The notes under the pieces are model-generated. The model searched no databases and was not told the origin of the DNA. It saw only the letters and a program-made list of their open reading frames with translations. Positions 34,152-59,470 of a stretch of DNA of 64,000 bases are shown here, piece by piece (position 1 is the first letter of the stretch; each line of letters starts with the position of its first letter). A program made the position numbers and the translations under genes. Origin of the DNA: Leclercia adecarboxylata (GTDB lineage Bacteria; Pseudomonadota; Gammaproteobacteria; Enterobacterales; Enterobacteriaceae); NCBI RefSeq assembly GCF_006171285.1, contig NZ_CP040889.1, positions 4,154,001 to 4,218,000 on the forward strand, written 5' to 3'.

Positions 34152-35432
34152 TTATGCGGTTTTTCTATGGGGCATCAGTGGGGCATTTTGAGTAAATGAT
34201 GCGTTCAAAATGCCCACCTGGTCATGGTTATTCTCGGTCATCCATTTGCCGTAAACCGTGAATAGCATTTGCGCTGACGAATGGCCCATCTGGTGCGCAA
34301 CGAAATTTGGGTTCGCTCCGGCGACCAGTGCCCAGCACGCATATGTGTTTCTTGTTTCATAAGACCGTCTTTGCCGGACGCCTGCACGACGCAGGGCAGT
34401 GCGCCAGGCTGAATTAATGGATCCAGGAACGTAGCACATCGTCTTCTTACCATTCATTGAAGTAATGGACGGCGAGAATATAAAGGTGCATTCATCGGTT
34501 CTCTTTTTTTTGTATTCCCGTAGGCTGACGCTTACCTTGTGGGATGCCATCATTCTGGTCAGTGGCATTTGCGCCTTGAGGGCATCAATTGCTGGCTGGG
34601 TAAGCTGTATGGTTCGAATTCCGGCGTTGGTTTTTGGCAGGGTGAAGTTACCCTTCAGGGAATAGTTCCGTGACACCGTAACAGTCCAGTTAACAGTATC
34701 CACATCCTCCCAGGCTAACGCGCTTAGTTCGCCGTGCCTGACGCCTGTATTTACCGCAAAGATAACCATATTCTGAAACTGCAGCGTTGGGCAGGCCGCA
34801 ACCACTCGCTGATACTCATCAGAAGTAAGTGGATCTGGAACGGGCCTTTCTTTTGCAAGTGGGGTGATGCCTGCCATCAGATCGGTTTTCAGATAGCCAC
34901 TTTTGAAAGCAAAGCCCAGCATCCCGCCAAGACATGCCATATAGCTATTAACTGTAGGAACGCTTCTTCCCTTTTTTGGTGGATGATTTAGGCCATGTCT
35001 GGTCTTCTGCCAGCCGTTCAGTAGCTCCTTCCTGGCACTAAGGATATCTTCAGTGTTCAGGCTACCGATGTACCTGTTCTCACCAATTGTTTCGATAGTG
35101 GTTGTGAGGTGGCAATCGTAACGCCTCAACGTCCCGAGACTAAGCTCCATCTCCTTAAGCCCAAGCCATTTCGATTTCAGTTCAAGTAGTGAGATTTGCT
35201 TTCTGACGGTACTGAATTTCTCTGAGTTCGATGAATCCGGGAATTGTGAGGCATAGTTGAATGTGCCTGTCTTTATCGCAAAGCAGACCGAAGCCCGAAG
35301 CTCACCTGCCATTTTCCTGTTTTTCGGCGTGTCAGGAACGCCGAGATTTTCCCTGACACGCTTCCCCTGATATATGAACCATATGCGTAACGATTCTCCA
35401 TGAACCTCTACGCCTGTTGGGTATGCTGCCAT
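34152..35432 (-). CDS. int: Prophage tyrosine integrase
   Basis: 426 residues. The N-terminal about 75 residues form a DUF3596-type arm-binding domain, followed by a SAM-like core-binding domain and the catalytic domain. Catalytic residues: Arg in NTGVRHGELSAL, the YETR box (Tyr in place of the common His before Arg), His in MGHSS, and nucleophile Tyr in LFTVYGKW. The second ATG (35432) is preferred because GAGG lies seven bases before it; the first ATG at 35438 abuts that site. It faces the malX junction and lies 32 bp downstream of xis. Confidence 0.94.
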   Translation of the reverse strand: MAAYPTGVEVHGESLRIWFIYQGKRVRENLGVPDTPKNRKMAGELRASVCFAIKTGTFNYASQFPDSSNSEKFSTVRKQISLLELKSKWLGLKEMELSLGTLRRYDCHLTTTIETIGENRYIGSLNTEDILSARKELLNGWQKTRHGLNHPPKKGRSVPTVNSYMACLGGMLGFAFKSGYLKTDLMAGITPLAKERPVPDPLTSDEYQRVVAACPTLQFQNMVIFAVNTGVRHGELSALAWEDVDTVNWTVTVSRNYSLKGNFTLPKTNAGIRTIQLTQPAIDALKAQMPLTRMMASHKVSVSLREYKKKRTDECTFIFSPSITSMNGKKTMCYVPGSINSAWRTALRRAGVRQRRSYETRNTYACWALVAGANPNFVAHQMGHSSAQMLFTVYGKWMTENNHDQVGILNASFTQNAPLMPHRKTA

Positions 35433-35464
35433 AATCATTCCTCGTTTGATGTGCCAAAGGACAT

Positions 35465-38905: not shown

Positions 38906-39388
38906 CTATTTGATGATGAGAGAGGGTTTGCCAATCTTGATGCGCGCGCCGGGGATATCGATTCCGGCGTCGAGCTTATGCTTGATAGCCAACTTGTCCG
39001 CTTTGATGGTGGTTTCATATTCGACATATTCAGCGGGTAGGGCGGCGGCATCGGTAATCTCAACTGACTTCGACGGCGCCCGGATGGTTACCTGGTGGAT
39101 GCCAGCTTTGATGGTAGTCTTGCCTGCAGTATCGAGAGACCGGGCAACATACTCCTTCATGCTAACCACTCGGTTCTCTGCAGCCTTTGCACGCTCAGCC
39201 AGTTTGCGGGACTCCTCCTTAAGAGTCTCCGCATAGGCCTGCTCGTTTTTGCAGGCCGCCAGGATCTGCTCCACTTTCGCTTCAAGCTCCCATTCGATGC
39301 CGTCCAGGGTATCTGCGATTAGTTCCGGGTCCATATCGGCGTCGGTCAGCTTGGCGAAGTCATTCGCTATCTGGTAGAGAGCAGTCAT
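38906..39388 (-). CDS. Siphovirus Gp157-family protein
   Basis: 160 residues matching the Gp157 family: N-terminal helix MTALYQIANDFAKL, a long coiled coil (about residues 30-85), and a conserved C-terminal beta region ending GIDIPGARIKIGK. In Streptococcus phages the family has been linked to phage resistance; in lambdoid phages it accompanies recombination genes. It overlaps the recT stop by four bases. Confidence 0.8.
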   Translation of the reverse strand: MTALYQIANDFAKLTDADMDPELIADTLDGIEWELEAKVEQILAACKNEQAYAETLKEESRKLAERAKAAENRVVSMKEYVARSLDTAGKTTIKAGIHQVTIRAPSKSVEITDAAALPAEYVEYETTIKADKLAIKHKLDAGIDIPGARIKIGKPSLIIK

Positions 39389-40284
39389 TGCGCCACCTCC
39401 TCAAGCTTCATTTTGCACTCGGCATAGATGGCCTGTACGTTCTGCTGCAGCTTCATGCCGGCCGTCATTCTGTAGGCCGCCTGGAAGTGCATTTTCAGGT
39501 CGTGCATGGTTTCAGCGCGTTCCATTTCATCGCACAGCGCCGACACCTTGTCGTGAAGTTCTTGCTTTCTCTGCTCTTCAGACAGGATTACTTCGCTTTC
39601 TGGCGTGTGGGTCATAACCGGCTCCTGGTGGATTCCCTCATCTTCGTTGATGACGTGGATCGCGTTATCCAGACGCTCAGCGCGGGGCCAGTATTTGCTG
39701 GCGCGCTTAACGATGGTCTTGCGCGCCATTTCCTCCCAGAAGTTCTTCCATGGGCCATTCTTGGCCTTACTGGTAGCTTCCGTCGCCTTAATCTCAGCCA
39801 GGCTCATTTCTTCCGTCAGGTAGTCACCATCCGGGGTTTTCACTGTGCAGTAGCCACCAACCACCGCGCCTCGGTCACCGAAGGCGTTATATTTGTGGGT
39901 CGGCGCAGTATCGAGGCCATTCGACTCGTAAGTGTCGTTTGAGTAGACCAGTTTGCACTGGCCCCACTTAATGGATCCGGTAGCCTGTGCGAGATGAAGC
40001 AGGCCCATATAGCTGATATCGAGACACACCATGCCGTCGCGCGGCACCAGATAAGCCAGTTTGCTCGCCGGGTTCAGCGTGATGCCGATGGCGGCCACGT
40101 TGATGATCGCGTTCTGCGCGCTGGCCGGGTTGCTGATTGCCGTTGTAGCAAGCCTGTCGTTTCGCTGAAATGCCTGAATTGCGAACTGGCTTTCTTTCGC
40201 CCACGTTACGGACTGATCGGTGACCGCCCCGGCAAAGAGCGGCTCCTGCTGTTTAACGAACTCAACGATGCTGAAGCTCATCAT
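39385..40284 (-). CDS. recT: RecT-family single-strand annealing protein
   Basis: 299 residues with RecT hallmarks: SNPASAQNAIINVAAIGITLNPASKLAYLVPR in the N-terminal half, ISYMGLLHLAQATG, and WEEMARKTIVKRASKYWP. It anneals complementary single strands in phage recombination. No RecE/exo-type nuclease gene lies next to it, which is unusual; a host nuclease or one of the unknown small genes may supply ends. Two adjacent ATGs (40284 and 40281) both fit the AGGAG site. Confidence 0.92.
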   Translation of the reverse strand: MMSFSIVEFVKQQEPLFAGAVTDQSVTWAKESQFAIQAFQRNDRLATTAISNPASAQNAIINVAAIGITLNPASKLAYLVPRDGMVCLDISYMGLLHLAQATGSIKWGQCKLVYSNDTYESNGLDTAPTHKYNAFGDRGAVVGGYCTVKTPDGDYLTEEMSLAEIKATEATSKAKNGPWKNFWEEMARKTIVKRASKYWPRAERLDNAIHVINEDEGIHQEPVMTHTPESEVILSEEQRKQELHDKVSALCDEMERAETMHDLKMHFQAAYRMTAGMKLQQNVQAIYAECKMKLEEVAQ

Positions 40285-42380: not shown

Positions 42381-42409
42381 ATTAAAAACCATAGTTGTTT
42401 TATCGTCAA
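42381..42409 (-). promoter_or_regulatory. Early leftward promoter PL
   Basis: Minus strand TTGACG - 17 bp - TTTAAT, with both operator sites overlapping it. Drives the early-left operon. Confidence 0.8.
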
Positions 42410-42422
42410 CAACAATAGTTGT
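42385..42422. promoter_or_regulatory. Left operator: two repressor sites
   Basis: AAAACCATAGTTGT (42385-42398) and ACAACAATAGTTGT (42409-42422) share the pattern ACAAC-N4-GTTGT found at the right operator. Their centres are 24 bp apart. One lies in the PL spacer and the other overlaps the -35 element. Confidence 0.8.
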
Positions 42423-42520: not shown

Positions 42521-42718
42521 ATGAACATCAACGAAGATAATGCTGGCCTGATTCTCAACGCCTTAGGGCTGGCGGTGGTGGATCTGATAATTAGCGGCAC
42601 CCCGATCAGCAGGGATAACCTGGTGGAGAGGCTGGAGCGTACCCGGCATGAAACCAGCAATGTGATAGGAAAGGGGGCGAACAGGGATGCGGCAGAGTTG
42701 GTGCGGAAAGGGCAATAA
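42521..42718 (+). CDS. Small rightward phage protein between PL and the immunity operon, 65 residues
   Basis: MNINEDNAGLILNALGLAVVDLI..., a hydrophobic helix then a polar helical part (ISRDNLVERLERTRHETSN). AAGGGGTG precedes the ATG. It points away from PL and into the 3' end of the DUF3037 gene, with a shared terminator. Function not recognised; it could be expressed in the lysogen. Confidence 0.55.
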   Translation: MNINEDNAGLILNALGLAVVDLIISGTPISRDNLVERLERTRHETSNVIGKGANRDAAELVRKGQ

Positions 42719-42738
42719 AAAAGCCCGCACGGGCGGGC
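42716..42738 (-). terminator. Second terminator after the immunity operon
   Basis: Minus strand GCCCGC-CCGT-GCGGGC followed by TTTTTTATTGCCC. It repeats the tail sequence of the first terminator (GGGCAATAAAAA on the plus strand), forming a tandem pair. Confidence 0.8.
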
Positions 42739-42821
42739 AGGTAGTGTTGCGATAGTTATTATTATCAGCTTCAGGCTGGATAGTTATCGGCAGAATGGGG
42801 GGATAGCTTTATGGGTGGGCA

Positions 42822-42847
42822 ATAAAAACCCGGCTCGGTGGCCGGGT
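42822..42847 (-). terminator. First terminator after the DUF3037 gene
   Basis: Minus strand ACCCGGC-CACCGA-GCCGGGT followed by TTTTATT, 17 bp after the DUF3037 stop. It closes the cI-HipA-DUF3037 operon. Confidence 0.88.
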
Positions 42848-42863
42848 AAGAGGGATTCAGAAT

Positions 42864-43673
42864 TTATGCAGCCATTCCTGCGGCCGTAAGCATATGTTCG
42901 AAGTAAACAGACATTTCCTCATTACTGAGTAAGTTAAACATTCTATCTGCATAATTATCAACAAGGGCTAGTTGTTGCGAGTGCATGCGCACTTGAGACA
43001 TATCAGCAGCATAAACAAGGAATGTATTTACTTGCCCGCTCCAGATAGTCTTGGCCGTGCTCATTGTTATCGCCTTGAATGCGCTATCACCAATTTTTTG
43101 TTTTGCATTTGTAGTCCTGAGATCTAGCGTTTCAGTAAGATGATAAACACCATTTTTCAGTAAAAGTTCGGCATACAAACCCTGTTGAGCAGAGAGAGGG
43201 TACCCCTGAACAACCTTGTGATCGTTAAGGTCATCAAATCCTTTCCCCATAATCCCATAGTGAGAAAACTGATTCTTTAGCTCAGTGATTATTCTCTTCT
43301 GGGTAATCGGCTCCTTTTTGTTAGATCTCTCAGGTGTTATGTAGGTTTTGTTCAAGAATTCTACATTACTTTCATACTCGTATTCAGTATTTGCTGAAAA
43401 ATTACCTGTATTAGAAAGGCTTATGCTTCCCTGGAAAAAACTAACAGCCTCTTCAAGCGTTAATTTTTCGGTTAGTAGGAATTCTAATCTTGACTTTAGA
43501 TCCTCAAGATTTTCCATGCTAAACGTTTTAGTTATCGCTTTTATCTTTGTAGATGTTTCAAGGACCCGGATGTCTGGGCCGCCTGGTGTAGCTACAACAA
43601 GACCAATATTGATAGATTCTGCTCGAACTGGATTTGGGGTAATCCTTATGATGCTGTAGTTATATACTGTCAT
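42864..43673 (-). CDS. DUF3037-family protein, partner of the HipA-like kinase
   Basis: 269 residues. The N-terminus MTVYNYSIIRITPNPVRAESINIGLVV has the DUF3037 pattern (YxxIRxxPxxxRxExxNIGxVV). The remainder is mixed alpha/beta with no signal peptide or membrane segment. It starts by ATGA overlap with the HipA-like gene, so the two are made together. DUF3037 genes commonly neighbour HipA-type kinase genes in bacteria; the biochemical role is not known to me. The region is more A+T-rich than flanking phage genes, a sign of recent acquisition. Position downstream of cI implies expression in the lysogen. Confidence 0.78.
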   Translation of the reverse strand: MTVYNYSIIRITPNPVRAESINIGLVVATPGGPDIRVLETSTKIKAITKTFSMENLEDLKSRLEFLLTEKLTLEEAVSFFQGSISLSNTGNFSANTEYEYESNVEFLNKTYITPERSNKKEPITQKRIITELKNQFSHYGIMGKGFDDLNDHKVVQGYPLSAQQGLYAELLLKNGVYHLTETLDLRTTNAKQKIGDSAFKAITMSTAKTIWSGQVNTFLVYAADMSQVRMHSQQLALVDNYADRMFNLLSNEEMSVYFEHMLTAAGMAA

Positions 43674-44497
43674 CTCAACACCTCTTTCCGAACAACATCT
43701 ATTCGCGTTTGCCTATTGTTACTCGCCCACCATGACGTTAAAGCCGATTTTTGAAGGGGGTTGAGCCAGGATTCTGGCATATCATTACATATGGACTCAA
43801 TCGTTCCTGGCTGAATTCTTGAAAGCTTATCAAGTATAGCTAGGCCTGATTCTCTACAGGAAGGATGATCTCCTGTCAACTTTCTAATGCTTACCCACTT
43901 ATCGGTTGTCGGGCACCCATAAGGCAGCAGCGCGTCACCAGTTCTATTTGGCCACCCCATCACCAGTGAGGAAAAACCAAAATCAAAAGGCTGGACGATC
44001 ACATGTCCATCACGACCAACAGAATACAGATAGTTCGACAAGTTCCTATCGACATTGAATATAAACTGATCAAATGCGTAGATAGCCCAAACCTGATTCT
44101 TAAGAGCTGTCGACGTACACAAATGCTCTGCAAAGGTTATTTCATCCATCGGAGTGGAGGTAGCAGACAAATCATATCTCGACCCAAAGTAATCAACTCC
44201 AGTGCTCTCATCATGAATTATTTTGCAGTGCGGAGTTGCTATACCACACATGTCAGCAAGTTTAGTGCATAGCCATTCGCTTGCCGGTACTAGCATTGGG
44301 TTGTGGGCAATCTTGGCTAGGGAATCGGCTCCATCTTGGCAGCATTTAACTGCATATTCCCATCCATCAGTTGCAATCACAGTGTGTCTAAGATGAGCGG
44401 TCCTTTTTCCTAAAACAGGACGCATACTTACTACATCTAAGCCAAATAAATTATCTTGGTCAGTAATCTGTCCTTCACTCTGATGATCGTCCTGCAT
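43670..44497 (-). CDS. HipA-like kinase in the immunity operon
   Basis: 275 residues from the ATG at 44497 (GAGG five bases upstream); an ATG one codon earlier and a TTG at 44560 are alternatives. HipA/PI3-4-kinase-like features: a possible ATP-binding Lys51 in EYAVKCC, the catalytic loop FNVDRNLSNYL (Asp150, Asn155) and the metal-binding Asp172 in PFDFGFSS. It lacks the HipB-binding N-terminal subdomain of full-length HipA (about 440 residues), so it belongs to the short HipA-like class. It follows cI by about 115 bp on the same strand and is coupled to DUF3037. No HipB-type antitoxin is adjacent, unless cI itself fills part of that role. Confidence 0.8.
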   Translation of the reverse strand: MQDDHQSEGQITDQDNLFGLDVVSMRPVLGKRTAHLRHTVIATDGWEYAVKCCQDGADSLAKIAHNPMLVPASEWLCTKLADMCGIATPHCKIIHDESTGVDYFGSRYDLSATSTPMDEITFAEHLCTSTALKNQVWAIYAFDQFIFNVDRNLSNYLYSVGRDGHVIVQPFDFGFSSLVMGWPNRTGDALLPYGCPTTDKWVSIRKLTGDHPSCRESGLAILDKLSRIQPGTIESICNDMPESWLNPLQKSALTSWWASNNRQTRIDVVRKEVLR

Positions 44498-44614
44498 CAT
44501 TTCCTCGTGAATGCAATTAATAGGTAGCTTACCTTTTCGCCTAGATCTTGATGTTCGCAATCGCAGTTGCTACCAGCTATGCGCCGACCAGAACACCTTG
44601 CCGAAGCCCCAGCC

Positions 44615-45307
44615 TCAAAGCTTGTTGTAAGCAATGGACTCATGGATCAGCGCCTTACCCATGATGTACAGCTGGTCCTGATTTTCTTCTGTCACATACC
44701 AGTCTTTGTACGCCGGGTTATCGGAAAGTACAGCCAGCTGCAGGCCCTGCATTTGCAGGCGCTTGACGTGGAAGTGCTGCCCGAAGACAAACGCATACAC
44801 CCCGTCAACCTTGAAGTTCCTCACTGAAACGTCGAAGAAGAGGCGATCGCCAGACTGTATTGTCGGGCACATGCTGTCGCCATCAACAGTCATTACCTTC
44901 ACATCATGCTGAGTGCGGTTTCCAAAGAGGGATCGCGCGTGCTCAGTAGTGAACTCAATGGCGTGCAGAACTTCTACAAATTCCGAAATCATGAAAGAGC
45001 CTGGCCCCGCACTAACAGTCAGGTCGAGAACGTCGACGCGGAAAACGTCAGAGGCCGGATGTGCTGTTAAAGCGGCCACTGGGTATTTTGCGCCGTTATG
45101 CATAGATCCTTCGCCTGAGCTAAGCCAGTCAGGCATTACCCCAAGAGCGTTAGCAATATCAACAAGCTTGGTGGTCTGATTGGCCTTGCCAGTTTCAATC
45201 TTCTGAATGGCCGCTTGGCTAACCCCAACCAGATCCCCGAGAGCCTTTTGAGTAAGCCCCCGCGCAGATCGCGCTTCTTTAAGTCTTTCAGCAAGTGTCG
45301 TTTTCAT
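44615..45307 (-). CDS. cI: CI-type prophage repressor (HTH + S24 peptidase)
   Basis: 230 residues. An N-terminal XRE helix-turn-helix (LTQKALGDLVGVSQAAIQKIE, residues 18-38) is joined to a LexA-like self-cleavage domain. The scissile bond is Ala100-Gly101 in VSAGPGS, with nucleophile Ser145 in DGDSM and Lys182 in HVKRL, so RecA-stimulated cleavage and SOS induction are expected. It is transcribed from PRM toward the HipA-like gene. There is no ribosome site and the PRM -10 lies 7-8 bp upstream, so the message should be leaderless as in lambda. Confidence 0.95.
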   Translation of the reverse strand: MKTTLAERLKEARSARGLTQKALGDLVGVSQAAIQKIETGKANQTTKLVDIANALGVMPDWLSSGEGSMHNGAKYPVAALTAHPASDVFRVDVLDLTVSAGPGSFMISEFVEVLHAIEFTTEHARSLFGNRTQHDVKVMTVDGDSMCPTIQSGDRLFFDVSVRNFKVDGVYAFVFGQHFHVKRLQMQGLQLAVLSDNPAYKDWYVTEENQDQLYIMGKALIHESIAYNKL

Positions 45308-45314
45308 AATTTCA

Positions 45315-45343
45315 AATGTACAACCGTGGTTTTAATCCATCAA
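45315..45343 (-). promoter_or_regulatory. Repressor-maintenance promoter PRM
   Basis: Minus strand TTGATG - 17 bp - TACATT, with the -10 ending 7 bases before the A of the cI ATG. Transcription would begin at or next to the start codon. Confidence 0.8.
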
Positions 45344-45380
45344 ACGAAAATGGTTGTTGACTAAATACAACCATAGTTTT
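45320..45380. promoter_or_regulatory. Right operator: three repressor sites
   Basis: ACAACCGTGGTTTT (45320-45333), ACGAAAATGGTTGT (45344-45357) and ACAACCATAGTTTT (45367-45380) share ACAAC-N4-GTTkT, with centres 24 and 23 bp apart. The first lies in the PRM spacer, the last in the PR spacer, and the middle between the two promoters, as for OR3, OR2 and OR1 of lambda. Confidence 0.82.
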
Positions 45381-45412: not shown

Positions 45413-45643
45413 ATGAACCCAGTAATTAAAACCGCGATCAGTATCGTTGGTTCTCAGAAAAAACTGGGCGATGCCTGCGAAGTATCACAGCAGGCCGTTT
45501 ACAAGTGGCTGCACAACAAAGCAAAGGTCTCCCCTGAGCACGTTGGGAGCATTGTAAGCGCCACCGGTGGGGCGATTAAGGCTCACCAGATTCGCCCAGA
45601 CCTGCCGACTCTCTTCCCGAAGGTCGAGCAGTCAGCAGCTTAA
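45413..45643 (+). CDS. Cro-like regulator, YdaS family
   Basis: 76 residues: helix-turn-helix SQKKLGDACEVSQQAVYKWL followed by HVGSIVSATGG and a short tail. It resembles YdaS of the Rac prophage and other Cro-type proteins. First gene from PR, with GGAGG upstream, divergent from cI. Expected to bind the same operators and favour lytic growth. Confidence 0.88.
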   Translation: MNPVIKTAISIVGSQKKLGDACEVSQQAVYKWLHNKAKVSPEHVGSIVSATGGAIKAHQIRPDLPTLFPKVEQSAA

Positions 45644-45769
45644 TACCCAAAGCATTAACCGAACGGCCCGGTATATGGTCGGGTGCCCGGCGTGGTCAAG
45701 GTTGACTGTCAATGGTGCACGATAAACAACACCAATAAACATTAACTATTTCAAACAAATGGAACGTAT

Positions 45770-46309
45770 ATGCACTCACTTACTTATCAACAGAGTATCG
45801 GATTTTCTCCGGGCGTGATGATAAATCGCGCTCAGCAAAAACAAGAAGATAACCACGACGCGATCCGCAATGCGATCCGCTCATGGGCAGCGTCTCAGGG
45901 TCAGGACGTGGTGACGATGCTGATCGTCAATGAGTACCGGGAGCAGGGCGGGGTGGATATCACATTCCCCAAAGATGTAAGCAGGCAGCGCCAGAAGCTG
46001 TTCCGCTTCCTCGATAACCGCTTCGACTCCGAGCAGTACCGCGAGAACGTGCGCCAGCTGACACCGGCAATCATGGCCGTTCTGCCTATCGAGTACCGCA
46101 CAAAGCTGATTGGCGCTGACTGCAAACTGGTCAGGCTGGCTGAGGCTGAGAAGGAAATATCGGAAGCGAAGCAGGCCGTCATGCTGGACGCACCAGAGCA
46201 TCAGAAGCTGAAAGAGGTAAGCGAGGGTATAGCTGCACTGTTCAGGCTCATGCCGGACCAGGTAGGCCCGCTGATGACGATGGTCACATCAATGCTGGGA
46301 GTTATGTGA
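45770..46309 (+). CDS. YdaT-family protein (CII-position regulator/toxin family)
   Basis: 179 residues resembling Rac YdaT (AIRSWAASQGQDVVTMLIVNEY, then RQKLFRFLDNRF and LTPAIMAVLPIEYRTKL). YdaT has been described as a toxin whose production affects cell division, and by position it takes the place of CII. It follows the YdaS-like Cro gene, forming the usual ydaS-ydaT pair. The N-terminal about 25 residues before the conserved part are variable. Confidence 0.78.
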   Translation: MHSLTYQQSIGFSPGVMINRAQQKQEDNHDAIRNAIRSWAASQGQDVVTMLIVNEYREQGGVDITFPKDVSRQRQKLFRFLDNRFDSEQYRENVRQLTPAIMAVLPIEYRTKLIGADCKLVRLAEAEKEISEAKQAVMLDAPEHQKLKEVSEGIAALFRLMPDQVGPLMTMVTSMLGVM

Positions 46310-46570: not shown

Positions 46571-47387
46571 GTTAGCGGACTACAGGCCGTCTGAATCGGC
46601 CGTGGAGCGTCAGGTGGCAGATCTCGATGATGGGTATACCCGCATCGCTAACGAGCTGCTGGAAGCGGTTATGGCTGCCGATTTAACGGCTCGCCAGCTG
46701 AAGGTTGTTCTGGCGGTGATTCGCAAAACCTACGGGTTCGGTAAGAAGTTCGACCGCATCACCAATACCCAGATCGCGATGATGACCGGTATACACCACA
46801 CCCACGTATGCAAAGCCAAAAACGAGATGATCGCCATGAGCATCATCGTGACAAACGGCCATGCAATTGGCGTGAACAAGATAATTTCTGAGTGGAATTT
46901 CGAGGTTAGCCAAGTTAGCGAATCATTAGCTAAAACGGCTAACAAAACATTAGCCAAGTTAGCTAATGGGTATAAGCCAACTCAGCTAAACACAAAAGAA
47001 ACTATTCAAAAGAAAGAAAAGAAAGAAACCCCCTTACCCCCTGACGGGGGCGACGCTGGAAGTGAAAAACTTACAGCCAGAACCAAAGTCAGCATCGACT
47101 ACGAATCCTTCCTGGCAGCCTACAACACCGAAGTTGGCGAAAGGCTCCCACACGCGGTTACGGTCAACGAGAAACGCAAGCGTCGTCTGAAGAAAATCAT
47201 CCCCCAGCTCAAGACGCCAAACGTCGAAGGGTTCAGGGCGTACGTCCGGGCGTTCGTGCATCAGGCCAAGCCGTTTTACTTCGGGGATAACAACACAGGC
47301 TGGACAGCAGACTTCGATTTTCTGCTGAGAGACGACACGCTTACCGGAGTTCGGGAAGCAAAATTCGCTGACAGGGGGATGGCATGA
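46557..47387 (+). CDS. Phage replication protein O-like
   Basis: 276 residues. The N-terminal half is the phage replication protein O domain, a winged helix ([54 protein letters not shown]). A low-complexity linker at about residues 118-170 covers the DNA iterons, and the C-terminal half would contact the helicase. It initiates phage replication by binding the origin within its own gene and loading the DnaB-type helicase encoded next. Confidence 0.88.
46903..47032. other. Putative phage replication origin (iterons plus A/T-rich tract)
   Basis: TTAGCCAAGTTAGC occurs twice (46906-46919 and 46950-46963) with TTAGCTAA and inverted GGCTAAC units between them, followed by an A-rich purine tract (46986-47032). 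The layout of iterons next to an easily melted tract inside the O gene is that of lambda ori. Confidence 0.75.
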
Positions 47388-48751
47388 GACAGGATATCGA
47401 AGCAAGTGTGATTGGCGGGTTACTCCTCGGCGGCCTGACCCCGTCCGCAAGTGACGTTCTCGCCCGGATGGAAGCGGACGCTTTCACAATACCGGTCTAC
47501 CGGAAAGCCTTTGAGGTGATCCGCAAGCAGGCCCGGAACCGCAAACTGATTGACGCCCTGATGGTTGCCGAAGAGTGCGGTGACGCGCATTTCGCTGACA
47601 TCATGGAAACGGCCAGATCATGCCCCAGCGCCGCCAACCTGCGCGGATACGCCGGGATGCTTAGCGATCAGCATCAGCGCCGCATGTTCCTGAGCGCAAT
47701 CGACGAGCTGCGAGGCGACGTGAGCAACGGAACGCTGGATAACGCAGCCTCGGCAATGGACGAGCTTATGCGTCGCCTGAGCATCATCAGGAAGCCCAAA
47801 ACTGAGGTTGCCCCGGTACGGCTCGGTGATGTGCTGGACGACTACACCGACACGCTGGAGAACCGGCTGAAGAACGGCGATGAGTCCGACACCCTGAAAA
47901 CCGGAATCGACGAGCTGGACGCCATCACTGGCGGGATGAATGCGGAAGACCTGGTGATTATCGCGGCTCGCCCGGGCATGGGTAAGACCGAGCTGGCGCT
48001 GAAGATTGCGGAAGGGGTGGCAAGCCGTCCTATGCCTGGCACCGACAGTCTGCGTGGTGTGCTGATTTTCAGCATGGAGATGAGCAACCTGCAAATTGCC
48101 GAGCGCAGCATTGCCGGACGGGAAAATATGTCCGTCAGCGTTCTGCGTAACCCGTCAAACATGGACGACGAAGGCTGGGCGCGGGTTTATAACGCCATCT
48201 GCCACCTGAAAGACCTCGATGTCTGGATGGTCGATGCGTCGAAACTGACCGTTGAAGAGATCCGCAGCATTGCCGAACGGCACAAGCAGGAACATCCGTC
48301 ACTGTCGCTTATCCTGGTTGACTATCTCGGCCTGATATCCAAGCCGAAAGCCGACCGTAACGACCTGGCGATCGCCCATATCTCCGGCAGCCTGAAAGCA
48401 ATGGCGAAGGATTTAAAGTGTCCGGTCATCTCTCTGAGCCAGCTTTCCCGTTACGTTGAGAAGCGCCCAAACAAGCGCCCGACCAACGCCGACCTGCGCG
48501 ACTCCGGCAGCATTGAGCAGGACGCAGACAGCATCATCATGCTCTACCGCGAGGCTGTGTACGACGAGCATTCTCCGGCAGCGCCATATGCCGAGGTCAT
48601 CGTGACCAAAAACCGCTTCGGTACGCTCGGCACCGTTTACCAGAAATTCGTGAACGGTCACTTCATGCCATGCGATCAGGACGAAGTTCGCCGTATCTCA
48701 ACCAGCAAGCCATCTACCAGCAAGCGCTACACGAAAGGGGCTGACGTATGA
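47384..48751 (+). CDS. DnaB-type replicative helicase
   Basis: 455 residues. An N-terminal DnaB-like domain ([13 protein letters not shown], about residues 1-120) and a RecA-like helicase core: Walker [11 protein letters not shown], Walker [17 protein letters not shown] and [17 protein letters not shown]. It makes the phage independent of host DnaB for unwinding, unlike lambda P, which recruits the host enzyme. ATGA overlap with the O-like gene. Confidence 0.94.
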
Positions 48752-52242: not shown

Positions 52243-52318
52243 TTGCCTGTAGCTCAGTGGAAAGAGCAACCGCCTTCTAAGCGGTTGGTCGCTGGTTCGA
52301 ATCCAGCCAGGCGAACCA
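52243..52318 (+). tRNA. tRNA-Arg(UCU)
   Basis: 76 nt including encoded CCA. Acceptor TTGCCTG/CAGGCGA (one wobble), D-arm GCTC-AGTGGAAA-GAGC, anticodon arm ACCGC-CTTCTAA-GCGGT with anticodon TCT, variable TGGTC, T-arm GCTGG-TTCGAAT-CCAGC. It reads AGA codons, rare in enterobacteria. It is transcribed as the first element of the late operon. Confidence 0.95.
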
Positions 52319-55962: not shown

Positions 55963-56436
55963 ATGTCCGGACCACCGAAAACCCCGTCACACCTGGTTTT
56001 GGTGAGGGGGAACCCATCCAAGCGCCCGATAAACCAGAATGAGCCTAAGCCGGAGAAAGGGATACCCAATACTCCGAAGCACCTCGACAAGATGGGTAAA
56101 TACTGGTTCCAGCAAATAGCGCAGGAGCTGGACAATATCGGCGTACTGACGCAGCTTGATGCGAAGGCGCTGGAGCTGCTGATTGAAGCCTATACCGAAT
56201 ACCGGCGCCACTGCGAAACGCTCGATACGGAAGGTTATACGTACCGGGTGGAGACACAAACCGGTGACGTAATGATAAAAGCGCATCCGGCAGCCGCGAT
56301 GAAGGCCGATGCCTGGAAGCGAATTCGCGCCATGCTGTCAGAGTTCGGTATGACCCCTGCCTCGCGCAGCAAAGTTAACGCTGGCGGTCCTGATAAGGTA
56401 GATCCGCTGGAAGAATTCCTGAAAGCGAGGGACTGA
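55963..56436 (+). CDS. Terminase small subunit (P27 family)
   Basis: 157 residues. N-terminal basic region (SHLVLVRGNPSKRP) and helical core (YWFQQIAQELDNIGVLTQLDAKALELL), ending DPLEEFLKARD, the P27-family pattern. It recognises phage DNA for packaging. The ATG at 55963 has TGGAG upstream; the stop overlaps the terL ATG (TGATG). Confidence 0.92.
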   Translation: MSGPPKTPSHLVLVRGNPSKRPINQNEPKPEKGIPNTPKHLDKMGKYWFQQIAQELDNIGVLTQLDAKALELLIEAYTEYRRHCETLDTEGYTYRVETQTGDVMIKAHPAAAMKADAWKRIRAMLSEFGMTPASRSKVNAGGPDKVDPLEEFLKARD

Positions 56437-58166
56437 TGGCTAAAGTGGCAGACGGAATCCGCTATGCCGAGCGCGTGGTCGGCGGAGAAATTGTTGCGTG
56501 CAAATATGTGAAGCAGGCCTGCGCCCGTTTCCTTGATGACCTGCAGGAAGGGGAGAAGCGCAACATTTTCTTTAGCGAGAGTCGCGCGCAGCACATCCTG
56601 AATTTCTACAAGTTCGTGCCGCATGTTAAAGGCGACCTGGCCGGTAAGCCGATTGAGCTGATGGACTGGCACATCTTCATCCTGATTAATATTTTTGGCT
56701 TCGTTGTTCCGCTGGTAAACGAGCAAACCGGGGAGCAGGTGCTGAGCGACAAAGGCCGCCCGGTAATGGTAAGGCGTTTCCGTACGGCTTATAACGAGGT
56801 GGCGCGTAAGAACGCCAAATCAACGCTCTCATCTGGCATCGGACTGTATATGGCCGGCGCTGATGGTGAAGGCGGCGCTGAGGTTTACTCAGCTGCAACG
56901 ACCCGCGACCAGGCCCGCATCGTATTCAACGACGCAGTAAACATGATTAAGCAGTCACGCGCCGCGCTGGGCAGGCTGTTTGACTACAATAAGCTCGCGA
57001 TCTTCCAGGAGCGCACGGCCTCCAAGTTTGAGCCGCTTTCCAGCGACGCCAACAACCTGGATGGCCTGAATATCCACTGCGCGATCGTGGATGAGCTGCA
57101 CGCGCACCGCACCCGTGACGTGTGGGATGTTCTGGAGACCGCGACCGGCGCCCGTTCGCAATCCCTGCTGTTCGCCATTACCACGGCAGGCTTTAACCGT
57201 GAAGGTATCTGCTATGAGCTGCGTGATTACGCAGTAAAGGTGCTGAGTGGCGTGGTAGAGGATGACACTTTTTTTGGAATTATCTTCACGCTCGATGAGG
57301 GAGACGAGCCGTTCGACGAAAAGGTGTGGCAGAAAGCCAATCCGGGGCTGGGTATATGTAAGCGCTGGGATGACCTTCGCCGCCTGGCGAAAAAGGCGCA
57401 GGAGCAGGTCTCAGCCCGCAATAACTTCTTTACCAAGCACCTGAATATCTGGGTAAGTGCCGAATCGGCCTGGATGGATATGATGAAGTGGGAGTCCTGT
57501 GAGCCTCTGGCGCCAGTTCATGAGCTGAAAACCTATCCAATGTGGGCAGGTGTTGACCTGGCGAACAAAATCGATATCTGTGCGGCGGTAAAAGTCTGGC
57601 GCGCGCCCGCCGGCCATGTACATGCGGATTTTAAATTCTGGCTGCCGGAAGGTCGCCTGGAGCGCTGCTCACGGCAGATGGCTGAGTTGTACCAGAAATG
57701 GAGTGACAGCGGACACCTGACGCTGACCGATGGCGACGTGGTGGATCACGCTGTTATCAAAGAAGACCTTCTGGCGTGGATTGCTGGTGAAAACCTGCGT
57801 GAAATTGGATTCGACCCATGGGGCGCGACGCAATTCAGCCTTTCTCTGGCAGAAGAGGGCGTGCCGATGGTGGAGGTGGCGCAGACGGTCCGTAACCTGT
57901 CAGAAGCGATGAAGGAAACTGAGGCACTGGCTTACGCCGGGCGCCTGCATCATAACAATCACCCGGTAATGACCTGGATGATGAGCAACGTCACCGCAAA
58001 GGTGGATAAAAACGACAACATCTTCCCCAACAAATCGACGCCGGAGGCGAAGATAGACGGCCCGGTTGCCATGTTTACCGGGCTCAGTCGTCTAATCCTC
58101 AACGGCGGAGAAGAGCCGCAGGATTTAAGCGGCTTCTTTGATAATCCGATAATGGTAGGTTTCTGA
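56436..58166 (+). CDS. Terminase large subunit
   Basis: 576 residues. The ATPase domain has a Walker A-like NEVARKNAKST and Walker B HCAIVDELHAH; the C-terminal nuclease domain begins AGVDLANKIDICAAV with its catalytic Asp. It cuts concatemers and drives DNA into proheads. HK97-type gene. Overlaps both neighbours by one base. Confidence 0.95.
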   Translation: MAKVADGIRYAERVVGGEIVACKYVKQACARFLDDLQEGEKRNIFFSESRAQHILNFYKFVPHVKGDLAGKPIELMDWHIFILINIFGFVVPLVNEQTGEQVLSDKGRPVMVRRFRTAYNEVARKNAKSTLSSGIGLYMAGADGEGGAEVYSAATTRDQARIVFNDAVNMIKQSRAALGRLFDYNKLAIFQERTASKFEPLSSDANNLDGLNIHCAIVDELHAHRTRDVWDVLETATGARSQSLLFAITTAGFNREGICYELRDYAVKVLSGVVEDDTFFGIIFTLDEGDEPFDEKVWQKANPGLGICKRWDDLRRLAKKAQEQVSARNNFFTKHLNIWVSAESAWMDMMKWESCEPLAPVHELKTYPMWAGVDLANKIDICAAVKVWRAPAGHVHADFKFWLPEGRLERCSRQMAELYQKWSDSGHLTLTDGDVVDHAVIKEDLLAWIAGENLREIGFDPWGATQFSLSLAEEGVPMVEVAQTVRNLSEAMKETEALAYAGRLHHNNHPVMTWMMSNVTAKVDKNDNIFPNKSTPEAKIDGPVAMFTGLSRLILNGGEEPQDLSGFFDNPIMVGF

Positions 58167-59470
58167 TGAAAGAGAACAAACAGCCCGGCAGGGTCAAAAG
58201 CGCGCTGCTGAACTGGCTGGGCGTGCCGATCGGACTGACGACGGGAACCTTCTGGCAGGAATGGATGGGCATGAGCAGTAGTGGAAAGGTGGTGTCGGCT
58301 GATAAAGCGATCCACCTTTCTGCCGTCTGGGCCTGTGTCAGGCTGCTGAGTGAGTCTGTATCCACGCTGCCGCTAAAGATTTACGCACGGCAGCCGGACG
58401 GATCACGCAAGCCCGCCACTGACCATCCGGCATACCAGGTTCTTTGTCGCCGGCCAAACCTCGAAATGACACCATCCCGTTTCATGCTGATGCTGGTCGC
58501 CAGTATCTGCCTGCGCGGTAATGCCTTTGTCGAAAAGAAGATGATCGGTAATCGCCTGGTGGCACTGGTTCCGCTGTTGCCTCAGAACATGGTGGTTAAG
58601 CGACTGGATAACGGCAGCCTGGAATACACCTATACCGAAGTGGCAACGCAACGCGTTATCCCGGTAAAAAACATTATGCATATTCGCGGGTTTGGCCTGG
58701 ATGGCATCTGCGGCATGATGCCGATGATGGCCGGGCGCGATGTGATCGGTTCGGCTATGGCGGTCGAAGAATCGGCAGCGAAGATATTTGAGAATGGGCT
58801 GCAAAGCTCGGGCTTTTTATCAGCAGAGGCAGCGCTGGATGCAGAGCAGCGTGAACGGTTGCGTGGTTATATGCAGGCATTCACTGGCTCACGCAATGCT
58901 GGACGGATTATGGTCCTGGAAGGCGGTCTGAAATATCAGAACGTCACCATGAACCCCGAAGCGGCTCAGATGCTGGAGTCCCGCGCGTTCAGCATTGAGG
59001 AAATCTGCCGCTGGTTTCGCGTGCCGCCGTTTATGGTTGGCCATGCTGATAAACAGAGTAGCTGGGCGTCGAGCGTTGAGGGAATGAACCTGCAGTTCCT
59101 GACAAACACGCTGCGTCCGTTGCTGGTAAACATCGAGCAGGAGATTTCCCGCTGCCTGCTGGATGGTGATGATGACCTGTTTGCTGAATTCTCCGTTGAA
59201 GGGTTGCTTCGTGCTGACAGTGCCGGACGGGCCGCTTACTACACCACGGCGCTTCAGAACGGCTGGATGTCCCGCAATGATGTCCGGCGTCTGGAGAACA
59301 TGCCGCCGATTGAAGGCGGTGAGCTTTATACCGTTCAGCTGAACCTGACGCCGCTGGAAGATTTGAAGCAGAACAGCAAGGCAGCACAGGCCGCACAGAT
59401 GCGTAAGCTGCACAGCTACCTTTTCCCTGACGTACCTTTCGAGCAATCCCCGCTGAAACAGGCGGCTTAG
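58166..59470 (+). CDS. Portal protein (HK97 family)
   Basis: 434 residues. HK97-like portal pattern: AIHLSAVWACVRLLSESVSTLPL near the N-terminus, FRVPPFMVGHADKQSSWASSVEG in the middle, and a Gln/Ala-rich C-terminal helix. Forms the dodecameric DNA channel at one capsid vertex. Confidence 0.95.
   Translation: MKENKQPGRVKSALLNWLGVPIGLTTGTFWQEWMGMSSSGKVVSADKAIHLSAVWACVRLLSESVSTLPLKIYARQPDGSRKPATDHPAYQVLCRRPNLEMTPSRFMLMLVASICLRGNAFVEKKMIGNRLVALVPLLPQNMVVKRLDNGSLEYTYTEVATQRVIPVKNIMHIRGFGLDGICGMMPMMAGRDVIGSAMAVEESAAKIFENGLQSSGFLSAEAALDAEQRERLRGYMQAFTGSRNAGRIMVLEGGLKYQNVTMNPEAAQMLESRAFSIEEICRWFRVPPFMVGHADKQSSWASSVEGMNLQFLTNTLRPLLVNIEQEISRCLLDGDDDLFAEFSVEGLLRADSAGRAAYYTTALQNGWMSRNDVRRLENMPPIEGGELYTVQLNLTPLEDLKQNSKAAQAAQMRKLHSYLFPDVPFEQSPLKQAA

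What the first reader, a model, noticed from the sequence alone, without database searches (positions are those of the whole stretch)
42816..44614. HipA-like kinase + DUF3037 pair in the rexAB position of the immunity operon
Directly downstream of cI and on the same strand lie a short HipA-like kinase gene (43670-44497) and a DUF3037 gene (42864-43673) that overlap by ATGA, then two tandem terminators. Lambda puts rexA-rexB, its superinfection-exclusion system, in this slot, where PRM expresses it in the lysogen while other phage genes are silent. The kinase has its catalytic-loop Asp/Asn and metal-binding Asp. It has no HipB-type antitoxin beside it. The segment is visibly more A+T-rich than the flanking phage genes. 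I infer an accessory two-gene module, perhaps abortive infection, in which the DUF3037 protein senses infection or restrains the kinase. The pairing of these families is known to me; a demonstrated function in this position is not.
Basis: partly seen in the sequence, partly recalled or inferred. Interest (0 to 1): 0.85.

Follow-up and report, generated by a model that had tools for sequence, protein, structure and literature searches.

The report
Kinase–DUF3037 cassette in lambda's rex slot
A dormant virus in a gut-type bacterium carries, exactly where phage lambda keeps its rexAB exclusion genes, a swappable two-gene cassette (a HipA-like kinase and its DUF3037 partner) that most likely makes infected cells stop growing and so blocks rival phages; related pairs were recently shown to defend bacteria, so this looks like a distinct branch of a known kind of system.

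Summary
A HipA_2-type kinase gene (43670-44497, -) overlaps a DUF3037 gene (42864-43673, -) by ATGA, directly behind cI, before two hairpin terminators, in the most A+T-rich stretch of the window. The position is lambda's rexAB slot at DNA level. Against lambda's immunity region two matches have E below 0.1: 38 bp starting at the base after lambda's cI stop (94.7%, E 1e-11) and the terminator directly after rexB (82%, E 0.032). They bracket the pair here and rexAB in lambda, although the cI proteins are barely alike. Operator-like palindromes flank the operon. The pair moves as a unit: pairs identical to rounding sit behind repressors 17% alike, and prophages with an identical cI protein carry a BstA-family or other genes there. 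Related HipA+DUF3037 pairs (DS-6/HipAD, Retron-Sda1) are published anti-phage systems; the window's pair is a divergent branch, hence a new variant. Best reading: DUF3037 restrains a growth-arresting kinase, expressed with cI in the lysogen and released on infection. Expression, toxicity and defence of this branch are untested. A nuclease-like fold in DUF3037 is suggested only.

The parts
43670..44497 (-). HipA-like (HipA_2) kinase, putative toxin/effector; start may be 44500
42864..43673 (-). DUF3037 protein, putative antitoxin/sensor; overlaps the kinase by ATGA
   Evidence: PF11236 27.7 bits; DUF3037 matched in 20 of 20 aligned proteins; model pLDDT 88.3, pTM 0.54
44615..45307 (-). cI-type repressor (HTH + S24 peptidase), first gene of the operon
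   Evidence: PF00717, PF01381
44567..44604 (-). left cassette joint: 38 bp shared with lambda immediately after cI
   Evidence: 94.7% to lambda 37226-37189, E 1e-11; exact 30-mer in 24 viral stretches, 23 behind a repressor
42815..42847 (-). right cassette joint: t_imm-like terminator hairpin, similar to the one directly after lambda rexB
   Evidence: 82% to lambda 35825-35792, E 0.032; terminator prediction; found downstream of the repressor in 164 of 221 survey loci
42723..42738 (-). second hairpin terminator
42385..42422 (.). putative OL: two operator-like palindromes (42385, 42409)
   Evidence: ACAACCATAGTTGT-like, 3 mismatches or fewer, on both strands (pattern chosen after reading the sequence)
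45320..45380 (.). putative OR: palindromes at 45320 and 45367, weaker one-strand site at 45344
45413..45643 (+). divergent Cro/YdaS-like regulator
   Evidence: PF15943 YdaS_toxin, phrog_35
42521..42718 (+). convergent small ORF (phrog_3975) at the edge of the slot

Best explanation
The pair is a mobile toxin-antitoxin-type superinfection-exclusion cassette. It occupies the rexAB slot of a lambdoid prophage and is co-transcribed with cI in the lysogen. The DUF3037 protein keeps the HipA-like kinase inactive. Infection by another phage releases the kinase, which phosphorylates a host target, probably in translation as HipA does, so growth stops and the incoming phage is not multiplied. Shown here: anatomy, position, co-inheritance of the two genes, exchange as a unit between short shared DNA joints, conserved kinase residues and predicted kinase fold. 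Shown by others for related pairs: defence, dependence on the kinase, toxicity when DUF3037 is deleted. Inferred: co-transcription with cI, toxicity and defence of this branch, trigger and target.
For: Kinase and DUF3037 are adjacent with a 4-base overlap in the loci tabulated; L413, from another family of the order, overlaps by 14 bases. The two proteins co-diverge (Pearson r 0.98 over pairs of 18 loci) while kinase and repressor hardly do (0.18). In 31 of 32 loci the pair directly follows a repressor (loci not independent, and the reference repressors were mostly taken from these loci, 18 of 19 of them with HTH_3). Slot joints are shared with lambda rexAB. RexA and a BstA-family protein occupy the same slot in relatives. 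Kinase fold like CtkA, HipA and HipT. Published relatives: in Retron-Sda1, kinase deletion abolishes defence and DUF3037 deletion is toxic (PMC12548924, passages); in DS-6/HipAD, a catalytic mutant loses defence (PMC13092281, passages). bstA in the same position is transcribed from the cI promoter (PMC7067206, passages).
Confidence: 0.68

Rival explanations
1. The DUF3037 protein is the effector or DNA sensor: its C-terminal domain has a PD-(D/E)XK-like (restriction-endonuclease) fold and acts on or binds phage DNA, and the kinase regulates it by phosphorylation.
Confidence: 0.12
2. The pair tunes the lysis-lysogeny decision of its own phage, as has been proposed for lambda RexA, and any exclusion is a side effect.
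For: Position in the repressor operon; RexA is reported to bias the lambda switch (PMC11077077, start of abstract and passages).
Against: The pair is found behind many unrelated repressors and is replaced by unrelated genes behind the same repressor, so it is not tied to one switch.
Confidence: 0.1
3. Neutral or decaying cargo: an inactive remnant of a transferred defence module.
For: Rare (2 of 394 genomes of the order, own included; 2 of 5426 E. coli genomes match the window's pair DNA, one only in part), low GC.
Against: Both frames intact; active-site residues invariant in 65 aligned sequences and both proteins co-vary over wide divergence, which implies selection on both.
Confidence: 0.05

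Closest known systems
DS-6 / HipAD (DefensePredictor paper PMC13092281; found earlier by Brenes and Laub 2025, not held) and PADLOC candidate PDC-M66
   Same: Two genes, HipA-like kinase and DUF3037 protein, no HipB; HipAD comes from a paper on E. coli prophage defences (title seen as a reference only). The window's proteins weakly hit PDC-M66A and B.
   Different: Low sequence identity: 24% over part of the kinase, only an N-terminal stretch shared in DUF3037, relative to a canonical E. coli pair. Whether that E. coli pair (L280) is DS-6 itself could not be checked. DS-6B is described with DUF1829, not found here.
HipA+DUF3037 of Retron-Sda1 (PMC12548924)
   Same: Same pairing; kinase needed for defence against Bas51, DUF3037 deletion toxic.
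   Different: Lies in a retron operon, not behind a prophage repressor; sequences not compared here.
Lambda RexAB
   Same: Same slot, similar left and right DNA joints, two genes downstream of cI.
   Different: Different proteins: a DNA-binding sensor and a reported ion channel (PMC8585504, PMC11077077, passages).
BstA (PMC8585504)
   Same: Same slot behind cI; a BstA-family gene (cluster c14, whose scanned member L173 hits BstA at 380 bits) follows a cI protein identical to the window's in L042, the same contig as L430.
   Different: One unrelated protein with a DNA self-immunity element (aba); such an element was not looked for here.
HipBA and HipBST toxin-antitoxin systems
   Same: HipA/HipT-like kinase fold.
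   Different: No HipB or HipS; the partner is DUF3037, encoded downstream of the kinase.

Membership tests
HipA/DUF3037 (HipAD, PDC-M66) defence pair | adjacent HipA_2 kinase and DUF3037 genes without HipB | tested here: met
   Pfam above both cut-offs; DUF3037 matched in 20 of 20 aligned proteins; PDC-M66A in 20 of 20 kinases at E 0.1 or better, best 3.7e-5, but PDC-M03A in 19 of 20 with best 6.8e-7
HipA/DUF3037 (HipAD, PDC-M66) defence pair | full-length similarity to the canonical pair | tested here: not met
   kinase aligned over 110 profile columns, DUF3037 over 35; hence 'divergent branch'
HipA/DUF3037 (HipAD, PDC-M66) defence pair | kinase-dependent phage defence; DUF3037 neutralises toxicity | not testable with these tools
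   needs plaque and growth assays
HipA-type kinase fold | ATP-Lys, catalytic-loop Asp/Asn, metal-binding Asp, HipA-like fold | tested here: met
HipBA | HipB-type HTH antitoxin encoded beside the kinase | tested here: not met
   neighbours are cI and DUF3037
RexAB (as a location) | between cI and t_imm, inside OL-OR | tested here: met
RexAB (as a family) | RexA/RexB protein homology | tested here: not met
   no RexA or RexB hit in Pfam, PADLOC or PHROG scans of the pair, though RexA is called in a relative's slot
PD-(D/E)XK nuclease fold (DUF3037 C-terminal domain) | fold similarity | tested here: inconclusive

The most novel reading that the evidence does not exclude
The region behind the lambdoid repressor is a defined cassette-exchange site. 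A 38-bp joint after the repressor stop (in a subset of phages) and a conserved terminator frame it in phages with otherwise unrelated immunity genes, lambda included. Unrelated exclusion systems (RexAB, BstA, HipA/DUF3037, PDC-M11 and many unnamed gene pairs) are swapped through these joints, probably by phage recombinases. The window holds a prophage-specialised HipA/DUF3037 branch whose DUF3037 protein uses a nuclease-like domain to sense foreign phage DNA and free the kinase. If so, any cassette between these joints is a candidate exclusion system.
Probability: 0.3. Interest if true: 0.7.

Novelty: new variant of a known kind. Interest (0 to 1): 0.5.

Why it matters
It places a recently recognised defence architecture in the best-known exclusion locus of temperate phages and shows, by shared DNA joints and near-isogenic swaps, that the slot works as a plug-in site. 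The two joints give a simple handle for finding untested exclusion systems: 100 different gene arrangements were seen in 221 slots (ORF-based, so an upper figure). The divergent branch also lets one ask which parts of the kinase/DUF3037 interface and trigger are conserved.

Tried and rejected
Rejected: 'part of repressor function'. The same pair follows unrelated repressors, and the same repressor occurs with other genes or, for a second lineage, with an empty slot. Rejected: HipB-like antitoxin. cI's HTH weakly matches HipB-type models below their cut-offs, but the pair follows many unrelated repressors. Rejected: kinase-DUF3037 fusion. P0188 (326 aa) looks like a frameshifted record. Led nowhere: tblastn of both proteins against the phage collection (no match at 1e-5); single-sequence searches of solved structures (no match); profile search of DUF3037 (five weak hits, none convincing). 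The class-wide profile search gave, besides the own genome, only five weak N-terminal matches among 369 genomes. BFVD hits for DUF3037 were not informative. Rows left out before counts: 35 of the 99 kinase relatives (fragments, P0188 and others close to rows kept) were not aligned in A4, and 57 of the 127 DUF3037 relatives were not aligned in A5; 19 of 240 survey loci were dropped because under 2 kb followed the repressor. Brenes and Laub 2025, the probable first report of HipAD, is not held, so whether its prophage position was described there is unknown to me; the hotspot between cI and N is in any case described in PMC7067206 and PMC8585504, the latter citing Degnan 2007. 'Boundary sequences' at lambdoid mosaic joints are recalled from older literature (Clark et al. 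2001, seen only in a reference list). One search on this listed 15 of 71 papers; I read new passages of one (PMC2327257) and had read passages of two others in it, so I do not claim that the joints are new. [quoted passage not shown] Not done: complex prediction of the pair, superposition of the putative nuclease active site.

Full report
What is there. On the - strand, cI (44615-45307; HTH plus S24 peptidase) is followed after 117 bp by a kinase gene (43670-44497, perhaps from 44500) that overlaps a DUF3037 gene (42864-43673) by ATGA, then by hairpin terminators at 42828-42847 and 42723-42738. Pfam calls are modest but above cut-off: HipA_2 30 bits, DUF3037 27.7 bits. PADLOC gives partial hits to the two members of the candidate system PDC-M66. 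GC is 0.419, the lowest of 624 windows of that size. The surroundings are a prophage: of ten larger ORFs scanned against PHROGs, five were named, integrase 34152-35438, RecT 39385-40284, DnaB-like helicase 47384-48751, terminase 56436-58166 and portal 58166-59470.

The rexAB position, tested. A 14-bp palindrome close to ACAACCATAGTTGT occurs on both strands (3 mismatches or fewer) at 42385 and 42409 and at 45320 and 45367, and at no other place in the window on both strands; single-strand hits lie at 45344 and at four places elsewhere, and shuffled sequence gave 2.25 hits per window. The pattern was chosen after reading the sequence. These sites look like OL and OR, so the operon lies between them as in lambda. 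Blastn of the window's immunity region against lambda's gave three matches with E up to 1: window 44604-44567 with lambda 37226-37189 (38 bp, 94.7%, E 1e-11), starting at the first base after lambda's cI stop; window 42847-42815 with lambda 35825-35792 (34 columns, 82%, E 0.032), starting at the last base of rexB; and a 16-bp match (E 0.41). The second is borderline by itself and gains weight from its exact place and from the survey below. The cI proteins are barely alike (best 25% over 68 residues, E 0.065). The window's pair therefore sits between the same two short sequences that frame rexAB.

How general the joints are. The exact 30-base left joint was found in 24 stretches of the viral collection. 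In 23 of 24 it lies behind a repressor of my reference set (lambda cI and four other types), and in 21 of 24 a terminator with 5 mismatches or fewer follows within 3.5 kb; the other three have under 820 bp held. The cassettes between are RexAB in 9, BstA-type in 1, a P63C-type protein in 3, cluster c35 with or without c3 in 4, c37+c38 in 2, three others, and none seen in two with little sequence held (named by cluster, one member of each named cluster scanned, RexB by lambda's own record). None of these 24 holds a HipA/DUF3037 pair. The exception without a repressor, L426, has an integrase-like ORF upstream. In a survey of relatives of three repressor types (best 80 kept of 353, 133 and 198 relatives), 221 of 240 loci had 2 kb or more after the repressor. 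They show 100 different arrangements of ORFs of 85 aa or more, 19 loci with none, and the window-type kinase+DUF3037 pair in 9 of 221, behind all three repressor types. ORF calling is mechanical, so some arrangements will include spurious ORFs. The terminator (4 mismatches or fewer) follows the repressor within 4 kb in 164 of 221 loci, against 1 hit in the upstream sequence (up to 6 kb, both strands) of the same loci. The left joint, with up to 7 mismatches in 30, was found in only 24 of 221 loci (15 of 73, 9 of 72, 0 of 76), with 1 control hit in 3.8 million bases, strands summed, so it marks a subset. In the own genome the terminator occurs once exactly and once with 3 mismatches.

Exchange as a unit. 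L040, with an identical cI protein, is 98.0% identical to the window from 47000 to 44569 and 96.8% from 42847 to 42078, with unrelated genes between. L042, also with an identical cI protein, is 96.5% and 95.9% on the two sides (breaks at 44571 and 42846) and carries a BstA-family gene. Conversely E. coli OW1E2 (L001) shares the pair at 94.3% DNA identity from window 44603 to 42817, behind a repressor 20% identical to the window's. L001 and L013 have pairs identical to rounding, behind repressors 17% alike. Over pairs of 18 loci kinase and DUF3037 identity correlate at r 0.98, kinase and repressor at 0.18; the p-values ignore relatedness. A second, canonical HipA_2/DUF3037 pair (258 and 85 bits) uses the same slot in E. 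coli: strains 800 and 98201 carry the same two proteins behind different repressors, while B1.H1.39 has the repressor of 98201 and no annotated cassette. That pair is in 283 of 5426 E. coli genomes. The DNA of the window's pair matches 2 of 5426 (one fully, one over 29% at 67%). The repressor-and-pair stretch of L020, whose pair is about 40% identical to the window's, is covered to 80% or more in 24 of 5426.

Distribution. In unnamed species genomes, own genome included, the window's type is rare: kinase in 1 of 60 of the genus, DUF3037 in 3 of 392 of the family and 2 of 394 of the order. Of 32 loci with the pair (duplicates included), 31 have a repressor directly upstream; the exception is the Rahnella plasmid L038. 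The reference repressors for that count came mostly from the same loci; 18 of the 19 match HTH_3. The locus from another family of the order (L413) follows a distant relative of these repressors (28% identity).

What is known. Passages read in PMC12548924: HipA+DUF3037 of Retron-Sda1 defends against Bas51 without the retron parts, kinase deletion abolishes defence and DUF3037 deletion is toxic. PMC13092281 (passages): DS-6, renamed HipAD, two proteins with a catalytic residue required; credited to Brenes and Laub 2025, which I could not read. PMC7067206 and PMC8585504 (passages): the cI-N interval is a known mosaic site, and bstA there is transcribed from the cI promoter. PMC2327257 (passages): lambda Red recombines diverged DNA efficiently, and borders of mosaic patches show no particular signal in general. 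The kind of system and the hotspot are therefore known. What I did not find described in my ten paper searches (open-licence papers only, listings and passages) is this divergent prophage branch and its framing by joints shared with lambda.

How it most likely works. Transcription from PRM would carry through cI into the pair (no terminator predicted between them; inference). DUF3037 would hold the kinase inactive (shown for a relative, inferred here). Infection would release it, and phosphorylation of a host target would stop growth (inference from HipA). Toxicity, trigger, target and defence in this branch are untested.

Noticed in passing
window 42521-42718 (+): A 65-aa convergent ORF (phrog_3975, unknown function) sits at the edge of the slot; small ORFs of similar size follow the slot on the opposite strand in several relatives.
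   Followed up: no
window 52243-52318 (+): A tRNA-Arg (tct) gene inside the prophage region, possibly phage-borne.
   Followed up: no
window 45413-46309 (+): The Cro-position gene matches the YdaS_toxin family, and the next gene corresponds to one annotated as YdaT-domain protein in E. coli relatives: a regulator pair that I recall from the Rac prophage, here with an S24-type repressor.
   Followed up: partly
L266:6466-7527, L259:7501-7878, L095:7291-8106, L109:6789-7331, L275:6635-7531, L214:6838-7707, L136:6843-7814: Other slot occupants look like exclusion candidates: PDC-M11A/B (ASCH), DUF6978 and DUF1828 (PDC-M24-like, weak), DUF6414, DUF7946/7947, P63C protein.
   Followed up: partly
L417, L419: Prophages with a repressor 99% or more identical to lambda cI carry genes other than rexAB after the same left joint.
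   Followed up: partly
L038 (Rahnella aceris pRAHAQ01): A HipA/DUF3037 pair 52% (kinase) and 62% identical to the window's on a large plasmid, a few kb from tail-fibre genes and without a repressor upstream.
   Followed up: no
L003:3233-4698: In E. coli R1 the same slot holds a protein kinase plus a PP2C phosphatase pair.
   Followed up: no
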